A DNA stretch of 32,206 bases from Nitrososphaerales archaeon (lineage in GTDB: Archaea > Thermoproteota > Nitrososphaeria > Nitrososphaerales > Nitrososphaeraceae): assembly GCA_025451315.1 (NCBI GenBank), contig JANWKP010000319.1, positions 1 through 32,206 of the forward strand, in the 5' to 3' direction. Shown in pieces: positions 5,399 through 32,206 of this stretch (position 1 is its first letter; every line of letters begins with the position of its first letter). The position numbers were made by a program, and so were the translations under genes. The notes beneath the pieces were generated by a model. The model was not told the DNA's origin and made no database searches. It saw only the letters and a program-made list of their open reading frames with translations.

Positions 5399-6292
5399 AT
5401 GAGAGTTATAGTCTGGCTAAGAATTATAAGAATTAAATTTCTTTTAGCCTCAATTATAGCTATTACCAATGGTATTCTATATAGCTATCTAACTTACAAC
5501 ATTTTCAATATAATTGATGCATTACTAACATATGTTGGCGTTATATTTTTACATGCTAGCGTAGATATATTTAATGATTATTGGGATTATAAAAGAGGAA
5601 TTGATACAATCACTAAAAGAACTAATTTTAGTGGAGGAACAGGAGTACTTCCTGAAAAAAAACTTGACCCGAATATAGTCTATAAAGCAGGGTTTCTTTG
5701 TATGGTAATAGGATTAGCGATAGGTGGATACTTTATTTTCCAAAGTGGATTGCTAATTGCAATTATATTAGCAGTAGCTACTTTATCGATTTATTTTTAT
5801 TCTACTACTATTGTAAATATTGGTCTAGGAGAAACACTGGTTGCAGTTAAAGGTACAATGATTGTAATTGGTACATCTTTCGTACAGTCTGGTATTGTCG
5901 ATTTACCAATTGTTTATCTAGGAATAATAATTGGAATATTATCTTCAATTGTTTTATATATAGCATCTTTCCCCGATTTTGACGCTGACAAAGAAAAAGG
6001 AAGAAAAACGTTAGTTATCTTAATAGGTAAAAATAAATCTGCACAAATATTTCCATTACTCATTATCTTAATTTATTCTTTAATATCGATTGGAATAATA
6101 ATACAATATTTACCCATATATTCGATCTTAACTTTTAGCTCATTAATTTTTGCTATTCGATCGTCTAAAAAATTGAAAAATTACGACAATATAGAAGATT
6201 TAGTCAAAGCAATTTCTTACACAATAACATTCTCTAGAATAGTAGGTATTTGTCTTATTGTAAGTTACTTAATTGCAATAATTAATAAATGA
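5399..6292 (+). CDS. UbiA-family prenyltransferase (MenA-like)
   Basis: This is an integral membrane enzyme of 297 residues with about eight or nine hydrophobic segments. Both Asp-rich Mg-diphosphate motifs of the UbiA superfamily are present: NDYWDYKRGID at 59-69 and DFDADKEKGRKT at 193-204. The sequence after motif 1 (FSGGTGVLP, with the GG and Leu-Pro) resembles MenA-type enzymes that prenylate 1,4-dihydroxy-2-naphthoate for menaquinone synthesis, which would fit a respiring archaeon. Other UbiA enzymes, such as geranylgeranylglyceryl-phosphate transferase or heme O synthase, are possible, and substrate cannot be settled from sequence. The gene stands alone, just after the transposase remnant, with no clear ribosome site. 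Confidence 0.88.
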   Translation: MRVIVWLRIIRIKFLLASIIAITNGILYSYLTYNIFNIIDALLTYVGVIFLHASVDIFNDYWDYKRGIDTITKRTNFSGGTGVLPEKKLDPNIVYKAGFLCMVIGLAIGGYFIFQSGLLIAIILAVATLSIYFYSTTIVNIGLGETLVAVKGTMIVIGTSFVQSGIVDLPIVYLGIIIGILSSIVLYIASFPDFDADKEKGRKTLVILIGKNKSAQIFPLLIILIYSLISIGIIIQYLPIYSILTFSSLIFAIRSSKKLKNYDNIEDLVKAISYTITFSRIVGICLIVSYLIAIINK

Positions 6293-8841: not shown

Positions 8842-9657
8842 ATGGATTGGGGTATGAAAAATAGATTATCAAGAATAATAAAACCAAAAAATGGACGTTG
8901 TGTCATGTTAGCTGTTGATCATGGATATTTTTTAGGTCCAACAGAAAAACTCGAAGTGCCTCAAAGGACCATAGAACCATTACTTCCGTATGTTGATTCA
9001 GTTATGCTAACAAGGGGAGTTTTACGCACATCTGTCAACCCTATTTCTAATGTTCCTATTGTTTTGAGAGTCTCAGGAGGGACGAGTATAATTGGAGAAG
9101 ATTTATCAAAAGAAACAATTGTTACATCAATAGAAGATTCAATCAGACTAAACGTGGCATGTTTAGCATTATCTATATTCGTAGGATCTAAGTATGAGCA
9201 TCAAACATTAGCTAATCTCTCAACTTTGGTAGATAATGGAGAAAGGTATGGTATCCCTATTTTAGCTGTAACTGCAGTTGGAAAAGAATTGGTAAGAGAT
9301 GCTCGCTATTTAGGATTAGCATGTAGAATAGCAGGGGAATTGGGTGCTCATGTTGTTAAAACTTATTACTGTGAAAAATTTGAAAAAGTAATTGAAGGAT
9401 GTCCTGTCCCCGTGATTATCGCAGGAGGCAAAAAACTTCAAAAAGAAATAGAAGTATTGGAATTAACTTTTAATGCCATCAGAGATGGTGCTTCTGGTGT
9501 TGATATGGGAAGAAATATTTGGCAATCAGACAATCCAATCGCAATGATAAAGGCTGTCAAATCTATTGTCCACGAAAATTTTTCGATTAAAGAAGCTTCA
9601 GACCTCTTAGAGATGGAGAAAAAAATAGAAGATAAAAGCACTGTTGTTATTAGATAA
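8842..9657 (+). CDS. LsrF-like class I aldolase/thiolase (DeoC/FbaB superfamily)
   Basis: The 271-residue product matches the LsrF branch of class I aldolases along its whole length: DWGMKNRLSRI at the start, VDHGYFLGPT (25-34), LTRGVLR (56-62), VGSKYEHQ (114-121), the Schiff-base lysine in VVKTYY (Lys173), PVIIAGGKK (190-198) and DMGRNIWQSD. In bacteria LsrF is 3-hydroxy-5-phosphonooxypentane-2,4-dione thiolase, the last step of autoinducer-2 breakdown. Related archaeal members act as fructose-bisphosphate aldolase or in 2-amino-3,7-dideoxyheptulosonate (aromatic) synthesis, so those roles remain possible. No lsr transporter, LsrK or LsrR gene is nearby; the partner is the zinc dehydrogenase just upstream. 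It lacks the roughly 30-residue N-terminal extension of enterobacterial LsrF. Confidence 0.82.
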   Translation: MDWGMKNRLSRIIKPKNGRCVMLAVDHGYFLGPTEKLEVPQRTIEPLLPYVDSVMLTRGVLRTSVNPISNVPIVLRVSGGTSIIGEDLSKETIVTSIEDSIRLNVACLALSIFVGSKYEHQTLANLSTLVDNGERYGIPILAVTAVGKELVRDARYLGLACRIAGELGAHVVKTYYCEKFEKVIEGCPVPVIIAGGKKLQKEIEVLELTFNAIRDGASGVDMGRNIWQSDNPIAMIKAVKSIVHENFSIKEASDLLEMEKKIEDKSTVVIR

Positions 9658-9904: not shown

Positions 9905-10573
9905 ATGAAAACAAATTTGATTGTTTTTTCTGTAATTGGACTTTCTCTTATTATGGGTTTAATTATTCCTGATAATTTGATACCTGTATTTGCTGCCATT
10001 CTTGTTGGAACAGATGAAGAAGATGAAATAAAAGGAACGAGCAAAAAGGATAGCATGTTTGGGTTGGAAGAAAAGGACAAATTATGGGGGAGAGATGCGG
10101 CAGATTATATTAATGGGGGCGAAGGACGAGATAAGATAGAAGGAAATAGTGGAAAAGATAAACTATATGGTGAATCTGGAAGTGACCGAATAGAGGGAAA
10201 TAAAGGAAGTGATTATATTGACGGATATACAGGCAATGATCTGATTCAAGGAAATTCTGGTAAAGATCAAATATTGGGATATAATGGGGATGATATTATT
10301 CAGGGAAACAAAGATGATGATATAATATATGGTGAAAAACACAATGACAGAATAGAAGGAAATAGTGGTAATGACTGGATCAATGGGGGACAAGGACGAG
10401 ATTTACTCATGGGAGGGTCTGGTGATGACGTTCTCTGGGGAAAATCAGGAAAAGATGTTTTGATTGGTGGAACTGGTGCTGATGAATTTCATTGCGGTCA
10501 AGGATTTGATATTATTTTAGATTTTGATAAGTTTGAAGGAGATACTAAATCAAAAAACTGTGAAATATTTTAA
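9905..10573 (+). CDS. Secreted RTX-like calcium-binding repeat protein
   Basis: The first ~31 residues form a signal peptide: Lys at 3, a hydrophobic core, and a small-residue end (VFAA) before acidic LVGTDEEDE. The rest, to 222 residues, is almost entirely tandem nonapeptide-like repeats of the hemolysin/RTX type, with units such as GGEGRDKIE, GNSGKDKLY, GNKGSDYID, GGSGDDVLW and GGTGADEFH. RTX repeats fold into a parallel beta-roll that binds calcium between turns. No enzymatic domain is attached, and two cysteines (HCGQ and KNCEIF) near the C-terminus could form a disulfide. RTX proteins in bacteria are usually exported by type I secretion, but a Sec signal is seen here. It is followed after about 120 nt by another exported acidic protein. 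Function is unknown; cell-surface or matrix roles are plausible. Confidence 0.85.
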   Translation: MKTNLIVFSVIGLSLIMGLIIPDNLIPVFAAILVGTDEEDEIKGTSKKDSMFGLEEKDKLWGRDAADYINGGEGRDKIEGNSGKDKLYGESGSDRIEGNKGSDYIDGYTGNDLIQGNSGKDQILGYNGDDIIQGNKDDDIIYGEKHNDRIEGNSGNDWINGGQGRDLLMGGSGDDVLWGKSGKDVLIGGTGADEFHCGQGFDIILDFDKFEGDTKSKNCEIF

Positions 10574-10692: not shown

Positions 10693-12315
10693 ATGAATAT
10701 GAAATTCTTGCTTATAGCGACAATAATTGCTACATTAATGATACCCTTAAATTTGCAAAGTTTTCCAATTGCTTTTGCTCAAACTTCTGATAAATCTTTC
10801 AAAGGTAACGAGGCACCATTTATACCTCCCCCTGAATCAGAAAGAATACCAAAAGCTCCTCCTAGCGATGCTCTGTCTATAAAAGATAGTCCTTCTGTTG
10901 GGATAACGGACACTGAAGAAGAAGAGGAAGAGGTAGAAACAGATAAAGATAAACTTCCTCCATTAACTGCAGGTGAAATTAAAGAGTTACCATTTGATAC
11001 AATTAATGATTCTGAATTAAAAGACATACAGATTATTTCTAATGAAACATCATCCTCAGATCCTATTAAGAGTATTCTAGAGGAAATAATAAAAAATGAT
11101 AGTATCATTTCAAACGATAATGATATTGATTCATTTAACTTATCTAAGATCAAAAATAAATTTAATGATACACAATTAGAACAAATTTTTATAGCTCAAA
11201 ATATGTCTAGGGATTCAGTTTCCGTAGAAGAAAATAATACTGACATTACATCCAATACAACTGCAGACCAAGACAATGATGACAACATACTGTCTGAGAC
11301 AGATTTACCAAATCTAGATATTTTGAACCTTGTAAATAATACAAAAGTCAATTCTAATGTTACTGAAACAGAAGAACAACCAGCTATAACTGGAGAGCTG
11401 TCAACAGGAGGCAATGTTACTGAAACAGAAGAACAACCAGCTATAACTGAGGAGCTGTCAACAGGAGGCAATGTTACTGAAACAGAAGAACAACCAGCTA
11501 TAACTGAGGAGTTGTCAACAGGAGGCAATGTTACTGAAACAGAAGAACAGAATAATGAAGAACGATCATTACAAGGAGGCAAGTCTATAACAGTGGAGGA
11601 GGTACCTTCAAAATCAACAGACTTCCAAGTTGAAGAGCCAACAGAAGGACATGTAACAATAAAAGGGCAATTAGCAAATAATACTATAAAAGATTCATCA
11701 ATTTCAACATCTTCAGAATTACAAGATGAAGATCAACAACAGCAACAACCATTAGAAGAAGAAGCAACAGGAACACAAGATGAAGATCAACAACAGCAAC
11801 AACCATTAGAAGAAGAAGCAACAGGAACACAAGATGAAGATCAACAACAGCAACAACCATTAGAAGAAGAAGCAACAAAACAACTGACAAAAGATGAAAA
11901 GAAAATAAAAGTTTCTGAAATCTGTAACGATGAACTAGATAATGATCACGATGGAATTATCGATGAGGAACATGATTGTCTTTCTCAAACGTCCGATGGC
12001 ACATCAACTAGTGAAAAAATAGTACCGGAATTATCAACTTTAGGTGACGATCACGATGAGAAAGATGAAGTAAAAGACGAAGCCAACATACAAACTGAAA
12101 AAAATTCTGATGAAGAACAAGTAACTGATGATTCCCAAAATAATAAGAAGAAAAATAATAAGCTAATTGAGGAAGATCGAACATCTTTAGAATCTTTAGA
12201 TCCTGAAATGCAACCTAGTGGAGTTGAAATACTTACTACTACAGAGATTTGTAATGATGAGATGGATAATGACTTAGATGCATCGATAGACGAGAAAGAT
12301 TGTATCAATAAGTAA
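10693..12315 (+). CDS. Exported acidic repeat protein with two MopE-like metal-binding motifs
   Basis: This 540-residue protein opens with a signal peptide (MNMKFLLIATII core, ending near AFAQ at about residue 30). The mature part is very acidic and low in complexity, and holds more than a dozen NxS/T sequons suited to archaeal N-glycosylation. It contains three 19-residue repeats (NVTETEEQPAITGELSTGG type) plus a partial fourth, then three copies of an 18-residue unit (DEDQQQQQPLEEEATGTQ type). Two motifs, EICNDELDNDHDGIIDEE (about 409) and EICNDEMDNDLDASIDEK (about 518), resemble the putative metal-binding EICNGxDNDCDGxxDE motif of MopE-like proteins. There is no C-terminal membrane anchor. 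It is likely a secreted or wall-associated glycoprotein; the metal bound is unknown. Confidence 0.8.
   Translation: MNMKFLLIATIIATLMIPLNLQSFPIAFAQTSDKSFKGNEAPFIPPPESERIPKAPPSDALSIKDSPSVGITDTEEEEEEVETDKDKLPPLTAGEIKELPFDTINDSELKDIQIISNETSSSDPIKSILEEIIKNDSIISNDNDIDSFNLSKIKNKFNDTQLEQIFIAQNMSRDSVSVEENNTDITSNTTADQDNDDNILSETDLPNLDILNLVNNTKVNSNVTETEEQPAITGELSTGGNVTETEEQPAITEELSTGGNVTETEEQPAITEELSTGGNVTETEEQNNEERSLQGGKSITVEEVPSKSTDFQVEEPTEGHVTIKGQLANNTIKDSSISTSSELQDEDQQQQQPLEEEATGTQDEDQQQQQPLEEEATGTQDEDQQQQQPLEEEATKQLTKDEKKIKVSEICNDELDNDHDGIIDEEHDCLSQTSDGTSTSEKIVPELSTLGDDHDEKDEVKDEANIQTEKNSDEEQVTDDSQNNKKKNNKLIEEDRTSLESLDPEMQPSGVEILTTTEICNDEMDNDLDASIDEKDCINK
11356..11550 (+). repeat. 57-bp tandem repeat inside the acidic exported protein
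   Basis: Three 57-bp units start at 11356, 11413 and 11470, followed by a 24-bp partial unit at 11527-11550. The copies are almost identical in DNA as well as protein, with only a few substitutions (for example GGAGAG versus GAGGAG). This points to recent duplication, so copy number may vary between strains. Confidence 0.9.
11722..11877 (+). repeat. 54-bp tandem repeat encoding Gln/Glu-rich units
   Basis: Three 54-bp units start at 11725, 11779 and 11833, the last shortened by the following sequence. Each encodes DEDQQQQQPLEEEAT with a GTQ linker in the first two. The DNA copies look identical over their common length, including the alternating CAA/CAG codons, which suggests very recent expansion by slippage or unequal exchange. 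Confidence 0.9.
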
Positions 12316-12563: not shown

Positions 12564-14252
12564 ATGGTTGAAATGATTGGGGCAAAGGCATTGATTGCTT
12601 CCCTAGAAAAAGAGGGAGTAGATATTGTTTTTGGCTTGCCTGGTGGTGCTAATTTGCCTATCTATGACGAATTAGTAGACGCAAATTTTAGACATGTCTT
12701 GGTAAGACATGAACAAGCAGCAGCACACATGGCAGATGGTTACGCACGAATTAAACGAAAAGCAGGTGTATGCATCGCTACTTCTGGTCCAGGGGCTACT
12801 AATCTAATAACTGGCATAGCCACAGCGCACGCTGATTCAATACCAATGGTGGCAATTACAGGCCAGGTACCAGTGGCAATGATTGGAAAGGATGCTTTTC
12901 AAGAAACTGACATAATTGGTATATCTAATCCATGTACGAAATACGCATTTCAACCAAGAAAAGCGGTTGAGATTCCAGAAGTAATAAAGAAGGCTTTTTA
13001 TATTACTGAAAGTGGACGTCCCGGCCCTGTATTAGTAGATATTCCAAAGGACGTACAGCAAGAGAAGGCAGAAATAGAGTTTCCGGAGCTGATAAAAGTT
13101 AGAGGATATAAACCTGCTTTTGATCCTGATTTGTCTCAAATCGAAAAAGCTATTGATCTAATTATGAAGGCAGAAAAACCAATAATAATGGCCGGAGGAG
13201 GTGTAATTCTTTCAGGAGCTTTTAATGAATTACAAGCTCTGGCAGAAATATTAATGTGTCCAGTCGTGACCACTTTTAAAGGAAAGGGGGGATTCCCCGA
13301 AAATCATCCTCTTGCTATGGGACCAATTGGGATGCATGGACATGCAGAAGCAAATAAAATAATAATTGAGGCAGATTGTATCATTGCAATTGGTGCTAGA
13401 TTCTCGGATAGGTCAGTGGGAAGATTCGATGAATTTGGTAAAGGTATGAGTATTATTCATTTAGATGTAGATCCAGCAGAAATTGGAAAGAATAAATCCG
13501 TGGATGTGGCCGTCGTCGGTGATGTGAAATCCTCCTTAAGAACATTAGTAAAGATGCTCACCACAAAAGGAATTAGAAAAGATCCTGACAATTCATGGCT
13601 GAAGAGAAGAAAAGAACTTATTGAATATTATACAAGTACAATAAAAGATTATTCTAGGGAAATTACTGCAAAAAAGACACTTAAAAAGTTACGAGAATTA
13701 TTACCTTCTAAAGCAATAGTAACCACTGAAGTAGGTCAATGCCAAATGTGGGCTTCTTTGCATTTTGATGTTATAACTCCAGGAACTTTTTTTAGTTCAA
13801 CAGGTCTAGGAACAATGGGTTTTGGATTCCCTGCTTCAATAGGAGCAAAGGCAGCGAAGCCTGATGTACCAGTGATTGATATAGCAGGGGATGGATCTTT
13901 TAATATGACTGAAAATTCTCTAGCGGTTTCAGTATTAGAAAAACTTCCAGTTATCGTATTTTTACTTAATAACTACATGTTAGGAATGGTTGCTCAGTGG
14001 CAAAGAACTTTTTACAACCGAAGATATAGTGGAGTGGAGCAAAATCGGTGTCCCGATTATGTTAAATTGGCCGAGTCATATGGTGCCCAAGGTATACGAG
14101 TTCAATCTATGAATGATTTGGATAAAGCAATTAAAACTGGATTAAGTTCTGACGTAGCTACAGTAATAGATATTCCAATAGATCCTGAAGAAGACGTTTA
14201 TCCTTTTGTAGCGCCTGGTTCAGGGTTAAAAGATATGATTGTGGGAGGCTAA
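12564..14252 (+). CDS. ilvB: Acetolactate synthase, catalytic subunit
   Basis: This ThDP- and FAD-dependent enzyme joins two pyruvates to 2-acetolactate, or pyruvate and 2-oxobutyrate to acetohydroxybutyrate, the first common step of valine, leucine and isoleucine synthesis. The 562-residue chain shows the N-terminal ThDP domain with GLPGGANLP (24-32) and the catalytic Glu50 in RHEQAAAHMADGYAR. SGPGATNLITGIA follows, then a central FAD domain, and the C-terminal ThDP-Mg motif GDGSFNMTENSLAV ending near LLNN (about 443-472). A GGAG ribosome site lies 8 nt before the ATG, which selects this start. It heads an ilvB-ilvN-leuA operon; the next gene begins 8 nt after its stop. About 250 nt of AT-rich DNA upstream has TATA-like sequences roughly 140-170 nt before the ATG, so a long leader is possible. 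Confidence 0.97.
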   Translation: MVEMIGAKALIASLEKEGVDIVFGLPGGANLPIYDELVDANFRHVLVRHEQAAAHMADGYARIKRKAGVCIATSGPGATNLITGIATAHADSIPMVAITGQVPVAMIGKDAFQETDIIGISNPCTKYAFQPRKAVEIPEVIKKAFYITESGRPGPVLVDIPKDVQQEKAEIEFPELIKVRGYKPAFDPDLSQIEKAIDLIMKAEKPIIMAGGGVILSGAFNELQALAEILMCPVVTTFKGKGGFPENHPLAMGPIGMHGHAEANKIIIEADCIIAIGARFSDRSVGRFDEFGKGMSIIHLDVDPAEIGKNKSVDVAVVGDVKSSLRTLVKMLTTKGIRKDPDNSWLKRRKELIEYYTSTIKDYSREITAKKTLKKLRELLPSKAIVTTEVGQCQMWASLHFDVITPGTFFSSTGLGTMGFGFPASIGAKAAKPDVPVIDIAGDGSFNMTENSLAVSVLEKLPVIVFLLNNYMLGMVAQWQRTFYNRRYSGVEQNRCPDYVKLAESYGAQGIRVQSMNDLDKAIKTGLSSDVATVIDIPIDPEEDVYPFVAPGSGLKDMIVGG

Positions 14253-32100: not shown

Positions 32101-32206
32101 TTATTGGTATTGTGGCTTTCCTTGTGGGTATTTTGGTTTATCATATGGGTCAGATTGGTATTGTGGCTTTCCTTGTGGGTATTTTGGTTTATCATATGGG
32201 TCAGAT
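32101..32206 (-). CDS. C-terminus of a 17-residue tandem-repeat protein, cut by the window edge
   Basis: Read on the minus strand, the frame enters from the right edge and ends at TAA (complement of 32101-32103). The 34 codons are exactly two copies of a 17-residue unit, DPYDKPKYPQGKPQYQS, the last ending at Gln before the stop. The unit is rich in Pro, Lys, Tyr and Gln with no hydrophobic core, so this part is disordered. Such repeats recall mussel-type or wall-associated low-complexity tails, though the N-terminal part, which would tell whether it is secreted, lies outside the window. The frame is supported by the in-frame repeat length (51 bp) and absence of stops. Confidence 0.6.
   Translation of the reverse strand, partial: SDPYDKPKYPQGKPQYQSDPYDKPKYPQGKPQYQ
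32105..32206. repeat. 51-bp tandem repeat, two units visible
   Basis: Two identical 51-bp units occupy 32105-32155 and 32156-32206, and the array continues past the window. Perfect DNA identity suggests recent expansion. The unit length is a multiple of three, in keeping with a coding repeat on the minus strand. Confidence 0.95.

What the first reader, a model, noticed from the sequence alone, without database searches (positions are those of the whole stretch)
10693..12315. Recently expanding tandem repeats in a heavily sequon-bearing acidic protein
Two unrelated tandem arrays (57 bp x 3 plus a partial copy, and 54 bp x 3) lie in one gene, both almost identical at DNA level. More than a dozen NxS/T sequons occur, and each 19-residue repeat starts with one (NVT). 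Repeat expansion would therefore add glycosylation sites in steps, suggesting a variable surface protein.
Basis: partly seen in the sequence, partly recalled or inferred. Interest (0 to 1): 0.5.

Follow-up and report, generated by a model that had tools for sequence, protein, structure and literature searches.

The report
Repeat-bearing secreted acidic archaeal glycoprotein candidate
A soil-type ammonia-oxidising archaeon carries a gene for a secreted, acidic, possibly sugar-coated protein whose internal repeats, each adding one potential sugar-attachment site, differ in number between related species, and which lies next to a calcium-binding partner gene.

Summary
Window 10693-12315 is a 540-aa open gene with two unrelated tandem arrays (57 bp x 3.4, 97% matches; 54 bp x 2.9, 100%) and 14 N-x-S/T sequons. 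The genome has AmoA and an STT3/AglB-type enzyme. The gene's family was found in 6 of 400 genomes drawn from its order, own genome included. In the 5 of 7 loci where the upstream side is held, the next gene upstream is a small RTX calcium-binding gene (one pair decayed). At the same place in the protein, relatives carry one, two or about three copies of their own sequon-bearing unit, so stepwise gain of sequons between species is real. Sequons exceed composition (14 vs 7.0), and four sequon positions persist while the middle residue changes. Array 2 has no sequon, and five of nine sequons compared are not conserved. Glycosylation, cell attachment and variation within a population are not shown. 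Most likely: a disordered acidic matrix or linker protein, probably glycosylated, working with a Ca2+-binding RTX partner, its length, charge and glycan sites retuned by repeat slippage.

The parts
10693..12315 (+). acidic repeat protein, 540 aa
   Evidence: open frame; mature pI 4.05 and no hydrophobic 19-residue window after the signal peptide; no Pfam match; family in 6 of 400 genomes drawn from the order
10693..10779 (+). probable Sec signal peptide (aa 1-29, AFA|Q; cleavage site judged by eye)
   Evidence: hydrophobic N-terminus; the following Q is invariant in 5 of 5 aligned proteins, the window's included
10780..10830 (+). conserved N-terminus of the mature protein, Q..(D/E)(K/R)SF.G...P..P
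   Evidence: alignment A5; in 6 genomes of the genus it matched this family's loci only, apart from one match at E 1.54
11095..11103 (+). conserved sequon N135 (NDS)
   Evidence: sequon in 5 of 5 aligned proteins: NDS, NET, NET, NWT, NLT
11233..11241 (+). conserved sequon N181 (NNT)
   Evidence: 5 of 6 aligned proteins
11254..11262 (+). conserved sequon N188 (NTT)
   Evidence: 5 of 6 aligned proteins
11335..11343 (+). conserved sequon N215 (NNT)
   Evidence: 6 of 6 aligned proteins: NNT, NET, NET, NQT, NNT, NET
11356..11549 (+). tandem array 1, 57 bp x 3.4, one NVT sequon per unit, no K/R
11721..11877 (+). tandem array 2, 54 bp x 2.9, Gln/Glu-rich, no sequon, no K/R
11914..11991 (+). acidic disulfide-type repeat 1 (EICNDELDNDHDGIIDEEHDC), possible Ca2+ loop by eye
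   Evidence: NF033662 E 0.001, 18.7 bits, below its cut-off of 41
12244..12303 (+). acidic disulfide-type repeat 2 (EICNDEMDNDLDASIDEKDC)
   Evidence: by eye, Cys 520 and 537; one search counted two stretches for NF033662 in the protein but printed only the best
9905..10573 (+). neighbour and likely partner gene: RTX nonapeptide-repeat protein with signal-peptide-like N-terminus, 222 aa
   Evidence: PF00353 E 2.4e-58; hydrophobic N-terminus; 0 sequons
8842..9657 (+). left flank of the pair (aldolase-type gene by eye)
   Evidence: homologue lies beside the right-flank homologue without the pair in G004, G011 and G006
12564..14252 (+). right flank of the pair (acetolactate synthase large subunit by eye)

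Best explanation
The gene makes an exported, very acidic, largely disordered protein that is probably N-glycosylated and works outside the cell together with the Ca2+-binding RTX protein encoded just upstream, as a two-part, calcium-dependent matrix or linker of this group of soil-type ammonia-oxidising archaea. Slippage or unequal recombination at one place in its middle duplicates a unit of about 20 residues (acidic, one N-x-T), so lineages differ in linker length, negative charge and number of potential glycan sites. Shown: arrays, family, adjacency to the RTX gene, copy-number differences between assembled species genomes, sequon excess, four conserved sequon positions, AglB-type enzyme in the genome. 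Inferred: export, disorder, glycosylation, calcium binding, joint action of the two proteins, matrix role.
For: Array-1 unit counts at the same place: G002 one (by eye), G005:C54 2.0 (60 bp, 100%), G001 2.7 (72 bp, 95%; three by eye), G003 2.9 (63 bp, 100%), G000 3.4 (57 bp, 97%), the decayed G005:C71 copy about 1.4 (by eye), none seen in G011. Sequon counts against shuffles: G000 14 vs 7.0, G002 5 vs 1.3, G003 9 vs 3.6, G011 9 vs 2.4, G001 8 vs 3.8, G005:C54 7 vs 3.9 (fractions of shuffles reaching the count 0.0045, 0.0042, 0.0051, 0.0001, 0.018, 0.075; G001, G002 and G011 are incomplete proteins). In residues 31-220, N in sequons kept in 17 of 38 comparisons, other N in 3 of 49 (Fisher p 2.5e-5, comparisons not independent; by site 4 of 9 vs 0 of 11, p 0.026). 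STT3 family hit over cut-off in the own genome. Nitrososphaera viennensis N-glycosylates N-X-S/T sites of surface proteins (PMC12153357: abstract, section 11 and passages). RTX gene next upstream in 5 of 5 loci where that side is held. The biofilm study PMC12448741 (passages) mentions a putative Ca2+-binding protein in an adhesion region induced in N. viennensis biofilm.
Against: No glycan, expression or localisation data. Only six proteins, three of them close, so conservation is weak at site level, and five of the nine sequons compared are kept in none of the relatives. Nitrosopumilus piranensis has aglB but showed no N-glycosylation (PMC12153357, passages), so the enzyme gene is not proof. 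The AlphaFold model is poor (mean pLDDT 41.2, six-row alignment): consistent with disorder but not proof. MAG assemblies can collapse or miscount repeats. The RTX gene belongs to a multicopy group (40 of 70 family genomes match at E <= 1e-20), so adjacency may say less than it seems.
Confidence: 0.5

Rival explanations
1. The repeats are near-neutral slippage in a disordered acidic linker; only length and negative charge matter, and sequons are passengers.
For: Array 2 of the window and the second array of G005:C54 expand acidic units with no sequon; both window arrays have no K/R; the array-1 units of G001, G002 and G005:C54 are alike between species, so one old sequon explains all their copies; five of nine window sequons compared are not conserved.
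Against: Sequon excess and four conserved positions outside the arrays; an N-x-T stands in every array-1 unit of the open genes while its middle residue varies (NVT, NKT, NET).
Confidence: 0.3
2. Variable surface protein: copy number flips within populations and changes recognition by viruses or grazers.
For: Copies 95-100% alike at DNA level; different unit numbers in different species.
Against: No membrane anchor found; no within-species data available; TRF listed no short-unit array in the gene at its score limit of 50; a DNA comparison with phage records gave no match, which says little.
Confidence: 0.12
3. A loosely kept or moving two-gene unit with no stable role, retained by chance in a few lineages.
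For: Patchy: 6 of 400 genomes; flanks without the pair in G004, G011 and G006, another ORF there in G008; at least 4 different neighbourhoods; the G005:C71 pair is decayed, and G003 may hold a decayed RTX remnant at that site.
Against: Six acidic genes are open as far as held, with conserved N-terminus and sequon positions; G005 keeps an open second acidic gene while the first pair decays; no mobility gene lies within the pair.
Confidence: 0.08

Closest known systems
Surface and extracellular proteins with intragenic tandem repeats (yeast adhesins, bacterial repeat adhesins; recalled, from no call)
   Same: Near-identical in-frame repeats in an exported protein, copy number differing between lineages
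   Different: No adhesive domain or anchor recognised in the window protein; archaeal; variation seen only between species here
N-glycosylated surface proteins of Nitrososphaera viennensis (PMC12153357; abstract, section 11 and passages read)
   Same: N-X-S/T sequons and an AglB/STT3-type enzyme in the genome
   Different: [quoted passage not shown] this is an acidic repeat protein with no glycan evidence yet
RTX nonapeptide-repeat proteins (PF00353)
   Same: The upstream gene 9905-10573 is made of these repeats
   Different: 222 aa with an N-terminal signal-peptide-like stretch; Pfam gave no other domain over cut-off; the acidic protein itself has no RTX match
acid_disulf_rpt, NF033662
   Same: Two CND..DNDxDxxIDE..DC-like segments at the C-terminus
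   Different: 18.7 bits, below the cut-off of 41; relatives G001, G003 and G005:C54 have a Big_9/cadherin-like domain instead

Membership tests
N-glycoprotein | glycan on N-x-S/T | not testable with these tools
   sequons only; needs mass spectrometry
N-glycoprotein | export signal and an oligosaccharyltransferase in the genome | tested here: met
   hydrophobic N-terminus (no signal-peptide program was run, cleavage judged by eye); PF02516 over cut-off, E 5.1e-30
N-glycoprotein | sequon number above composition and conserved positions | tested here: met
   4 of 9 sites conserved, by site p 0.026
Copy-variable repeat surface protein | near-identical in-frame tandem units | tested here: met
Copy-variable repeat surface protein | copy number differs between related species | tested here: met
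   one (by eye), 2.0, 2.7, 2.9 and 3.4 units; MAG assemblies
Copy-variable repeat surface protein | copy number varies within a species or population | not testable with these tools
Copy-variable repeat surface protein | membrane anchor | tested here: not met
   no hydrophobic window after the signal peptide; other attachment not excluded
RTX protein (upstream gene) | PF00353 repeats over cut-off | tested here: met
   194 bits, cut-off 23, 10 stretches
RTX protein (upstream gene) | calcium binding | not testable with these tools
   inferred from the family
acid_disulf_rpt NF033662 | score over curated cut-off | tested here: not met
   18.7 of 41 bits

The most novel reading that the evidence does not exclude
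A lineage-restricted two-gene extracellular module in ammonia-oxidising archaea: a Ca2+-loaded RTX protein plus an acidic glycoprotein whose internal repeats work as a dial for the number of (in N. viennensis, nitrogen-rich) N-glycans per molecule, reset repeatedly and independently at the same spot by repeat expansion, in a pair that is gained, lost and found at several genomic sites.
Probability: 0.15. Interest if true: 0.7.

Novelty: new variant of a known kind. Interest (0 to 1): 0.4.

Why it matters
The glycobiology of ammonia-oxidising archaea is described as largely unexplored (PMC12153357, abstract), and the proteins of their extracellular matrix are poorly known. A gene family in which related species hold one, two and about three copies of a unit with one sequon each is a natural dose series for asking what glycan number does, and its RTX neighbour gives a concrete pair to test for calcium-dependent assembly.

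Tried and rejected
Pfam and NCBIfam on the window protein: nothing over cut-off. Phage records, DNA level: no match. One genome-contig scan with the RTX alignment: 46 loci, three of them (L046-L048) with the contig lengths of the known loci of G002, G003 and G011 and public names; the other 43 are RTX matches, mostly bacterial by their titles. Of these I read the neighbours of one (L056, Nitrososphaerales archaeon TH5894) and saw no acidic relative. The many weak hits of alignment A1 lie in the Ig/cadherin-like part; alignment A4, without that part, gave only the family. AlphaFold gave a poor model, so no fold search was made. The sigma-70 scan found 14 promoter-like sites (14.2 in shuffles) and 3 terminator-like sites (1.1 in shuffles), all on the minus strand; it does not cover archaeal promoters. 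Genome-wide count of NF033662 in 13 genomes was no help: the window's own segments did not pass in that search, four genomes had matches elsewhere.

I first took the 2-kb filler in G003 between the same flanks to be unrelated. Protein searches found nothing (best E 0.65), but a nucleotide match of 46.8 bits (58% over 393 columns) to the end of the RTX gene exceeds the best of 200 local shuffles (44.0), so a decayed RTX remnant is possible; the match of 58.3 bits there is the leader of the right-flank gene.

Literature: five searches (listings only: 20 of 88, 20 of 267, 10 of 13, 10 of 710 and 2 of 2 papers shown) listed no paper on this pair by title or abstract start; passages searched in PMC7603488 had nothing on it.

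Full report
What is there. The window is one whole contig (G000:C319, 32,206 bases) of a 398-contig assembly. The genome has archaeal AmoA and one STT3/AglB-type hit. Contigs of its genus mates G002 and G003 appear, by equal length, under public names as Nitrososphaeraceae MAGs, so this is an ammonia-oxidising archaeon of that family. The ORF 10693-12315 encodes 540 aa: hydrophobic signal-peptide-like start, a conserved N-terminal part, array 1, array 2, and two cysteine-bearing acidic segments near the end. Mature pI is 4.05 and no hydrophobic window follows the signal peptide.

The arrays. TRF gives 57 bp x 3.4 at 11356-11549 (97% matches) and 54 bp x 2.9 at 11721-11877 (100%). Copies 1 and 2 of array 1 differ at two bases in one codon, copies 2 and 3 at one synonymous base. 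The array segments contain no K or R (17 D/E among 65 residues for aa 222-286; 17 D/E and 17 Q among 50 for aa 346-395). None of 500 codon shuffles of the gene produced a TRF row with period 30 or more.

Sequons. Residues 30-540 have 14 against 7.03 expected by shuffling (0.45% of 10,000 shuffles reach it); three of the 14 are repeat copies. The five relatives also show more than expected, one of them weakly (G005:C54, 7.5% of shuffles); three of the five are incomplete proteins. The RTX neighbour has 0, and 17 other window proteins have 39 against 44.6 expected. In residues 31-220, nine sequon N and eleven other N can be compared: sequon N are kept in 17 of 38 comparisons, other N in 3 of 49. 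Four sequons (N135, N181, N188, N215) are present in 5 of 5, 5 of 6, 5 of 6 and 6 of 6 proteins although the middle residue varies. The other five of the nine are kept in none of the relatives. Comparisons are not independent; by site the contrast is 4 of 9 against 0 of 11, p 0.026.

Relatives and copy number. With the N-terminal alignment, 6 of 400 genomes drawn from the order match, the own genome included (5 of the 6 genomes of the genus, plus G011 of another genus of the family). They hold seven loci, because G005 has two. Array-1 units at the same place: G002 one (by eye), G005:C54 2.0 (60 bp, 100%), G001 2.7 (72 bp, 95%), G003 2.9 (63 bp, 100%), window 3.4; none seen in G011. The G005:C71 copy, between the same flanking genes as the window pair, has about 1.4 units by eye and one much shortened equivalent of array 2. 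It is interrupted by stops and frame changes and lacks part of its 5' region, and its RTX neighbour is broken too. In every array-1 unit of the open genes an N-x-T stands (NVT, NKT, NET), so each unit gained is one sequon gained. Array 2 here and the second array of G005:C54 (51 bp x 2.1) carry none. MAG assemblies may miscount repeats, so exact numbers are provisional.

The neighbour gene. Upstream (9905-10573) lies a 222-aa protein of RTX nonapeptide repeats with a hydrophobic N-terminus (PF00353, 194 bits). A relative, 50-63% identical, is the next gene upstream in G002, G003 and G011, and broken in G005:C71: with the window, five of the seven loci. In the other two the contig ends inside the acidic gene (G001) or 57 bases before it (G005:C54), so nothing can be said. 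RTX matches as such are widespread (40 of 70 genomes of the family at E <= 1e-20); the four open neighbours score best there, partly by construction, since the model was made from them.

Gain, loss and sites. In G004, G011 and G006 the homologues of the flanking genes lie side by side without the pair; in G008 a different 139-codon ORF on the other strand lies between them. In G003 about 2 kb lie between them without an ORF of 100 codons; a weak nucleotide match to the end of the RTX gene (46.8 bits; best of 200 shuffles 44.0) suggests a decayed remnant there. So the site may have held the pair in G000, G005 and perhaps G003, and G004 may have lost it. Comparing ORFs of 100 aa or more, the neighbourhoods of the window/G005:C71 site, of G003, G005:C54 and G001 share nothing but the pair, giving at least four sites. 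G002 and G011 show only the upstream side and could coincide with the G005:C54 or G001 sites. G011 shares one further gene with the window (homologue of 5399-6292) at about 3.6 kb from the pair, but in other orientation and with other genes between. Local rearrangement rather than movement of the pair is not excluded.

C-terminal exchange. The window type ends with two weak acid_disulf_rpt-like segments (E 0.001, below cut-off), of which the first reads like an acidic Ca2+ loop (by eye). G001, G003 and G005:C54 have a Big_9/cadherin-like domain over cut-off instead; G011 had no Pfam match. G011 and G002 are cut by their contig ends, and G002 was not scanned.

Interpretation. [quoted passage not shown] abstract, section 11 and passages). 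So an aglB gene alone does not prove glycosylation here. A biofilm study (PMC12448741; passages only) mentions a putative Ca2+-binding protein in an adhesion region induced in N. viennensis biofilm. Put together, the best reading is a disordered, acidic, probably glycosylated linker or matrix protein that works with the Ca2+-binding RTX protein.

Noticed in passing
32103-32206: The contig ends inside a perfect 51-bp x 2 tandem repeat; G002, G005 and G001 each show two overlapping matches to it, so another repeat region is shared in the genus and may have broken the assembly here.
   Followed up: partly
L013:5964-6076: An 11-bp unit repeated 10.3 times without change lies about 2 kb downstream of the pair in G003.
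   Followed up: no
G003:C12:37699-40836: Four of the 19 RTX matches counted in this genome lie in one open frame of 1048 residues.
   Followed up: no
G024:C1:2380197-2382383: Eight matches to the Ig/cadherin-like part in one open frame of 1240 residues, six of them with the same score and 279-bp spacing: near-identical Ig-like repeats in a single-contig genome of another genus.
   Followed up: no
L010:4657-6440: In G005 both genes of the pair are broken between open flanking genes, while an open acidic paralogue sits on another contig.
   Followed up: partly
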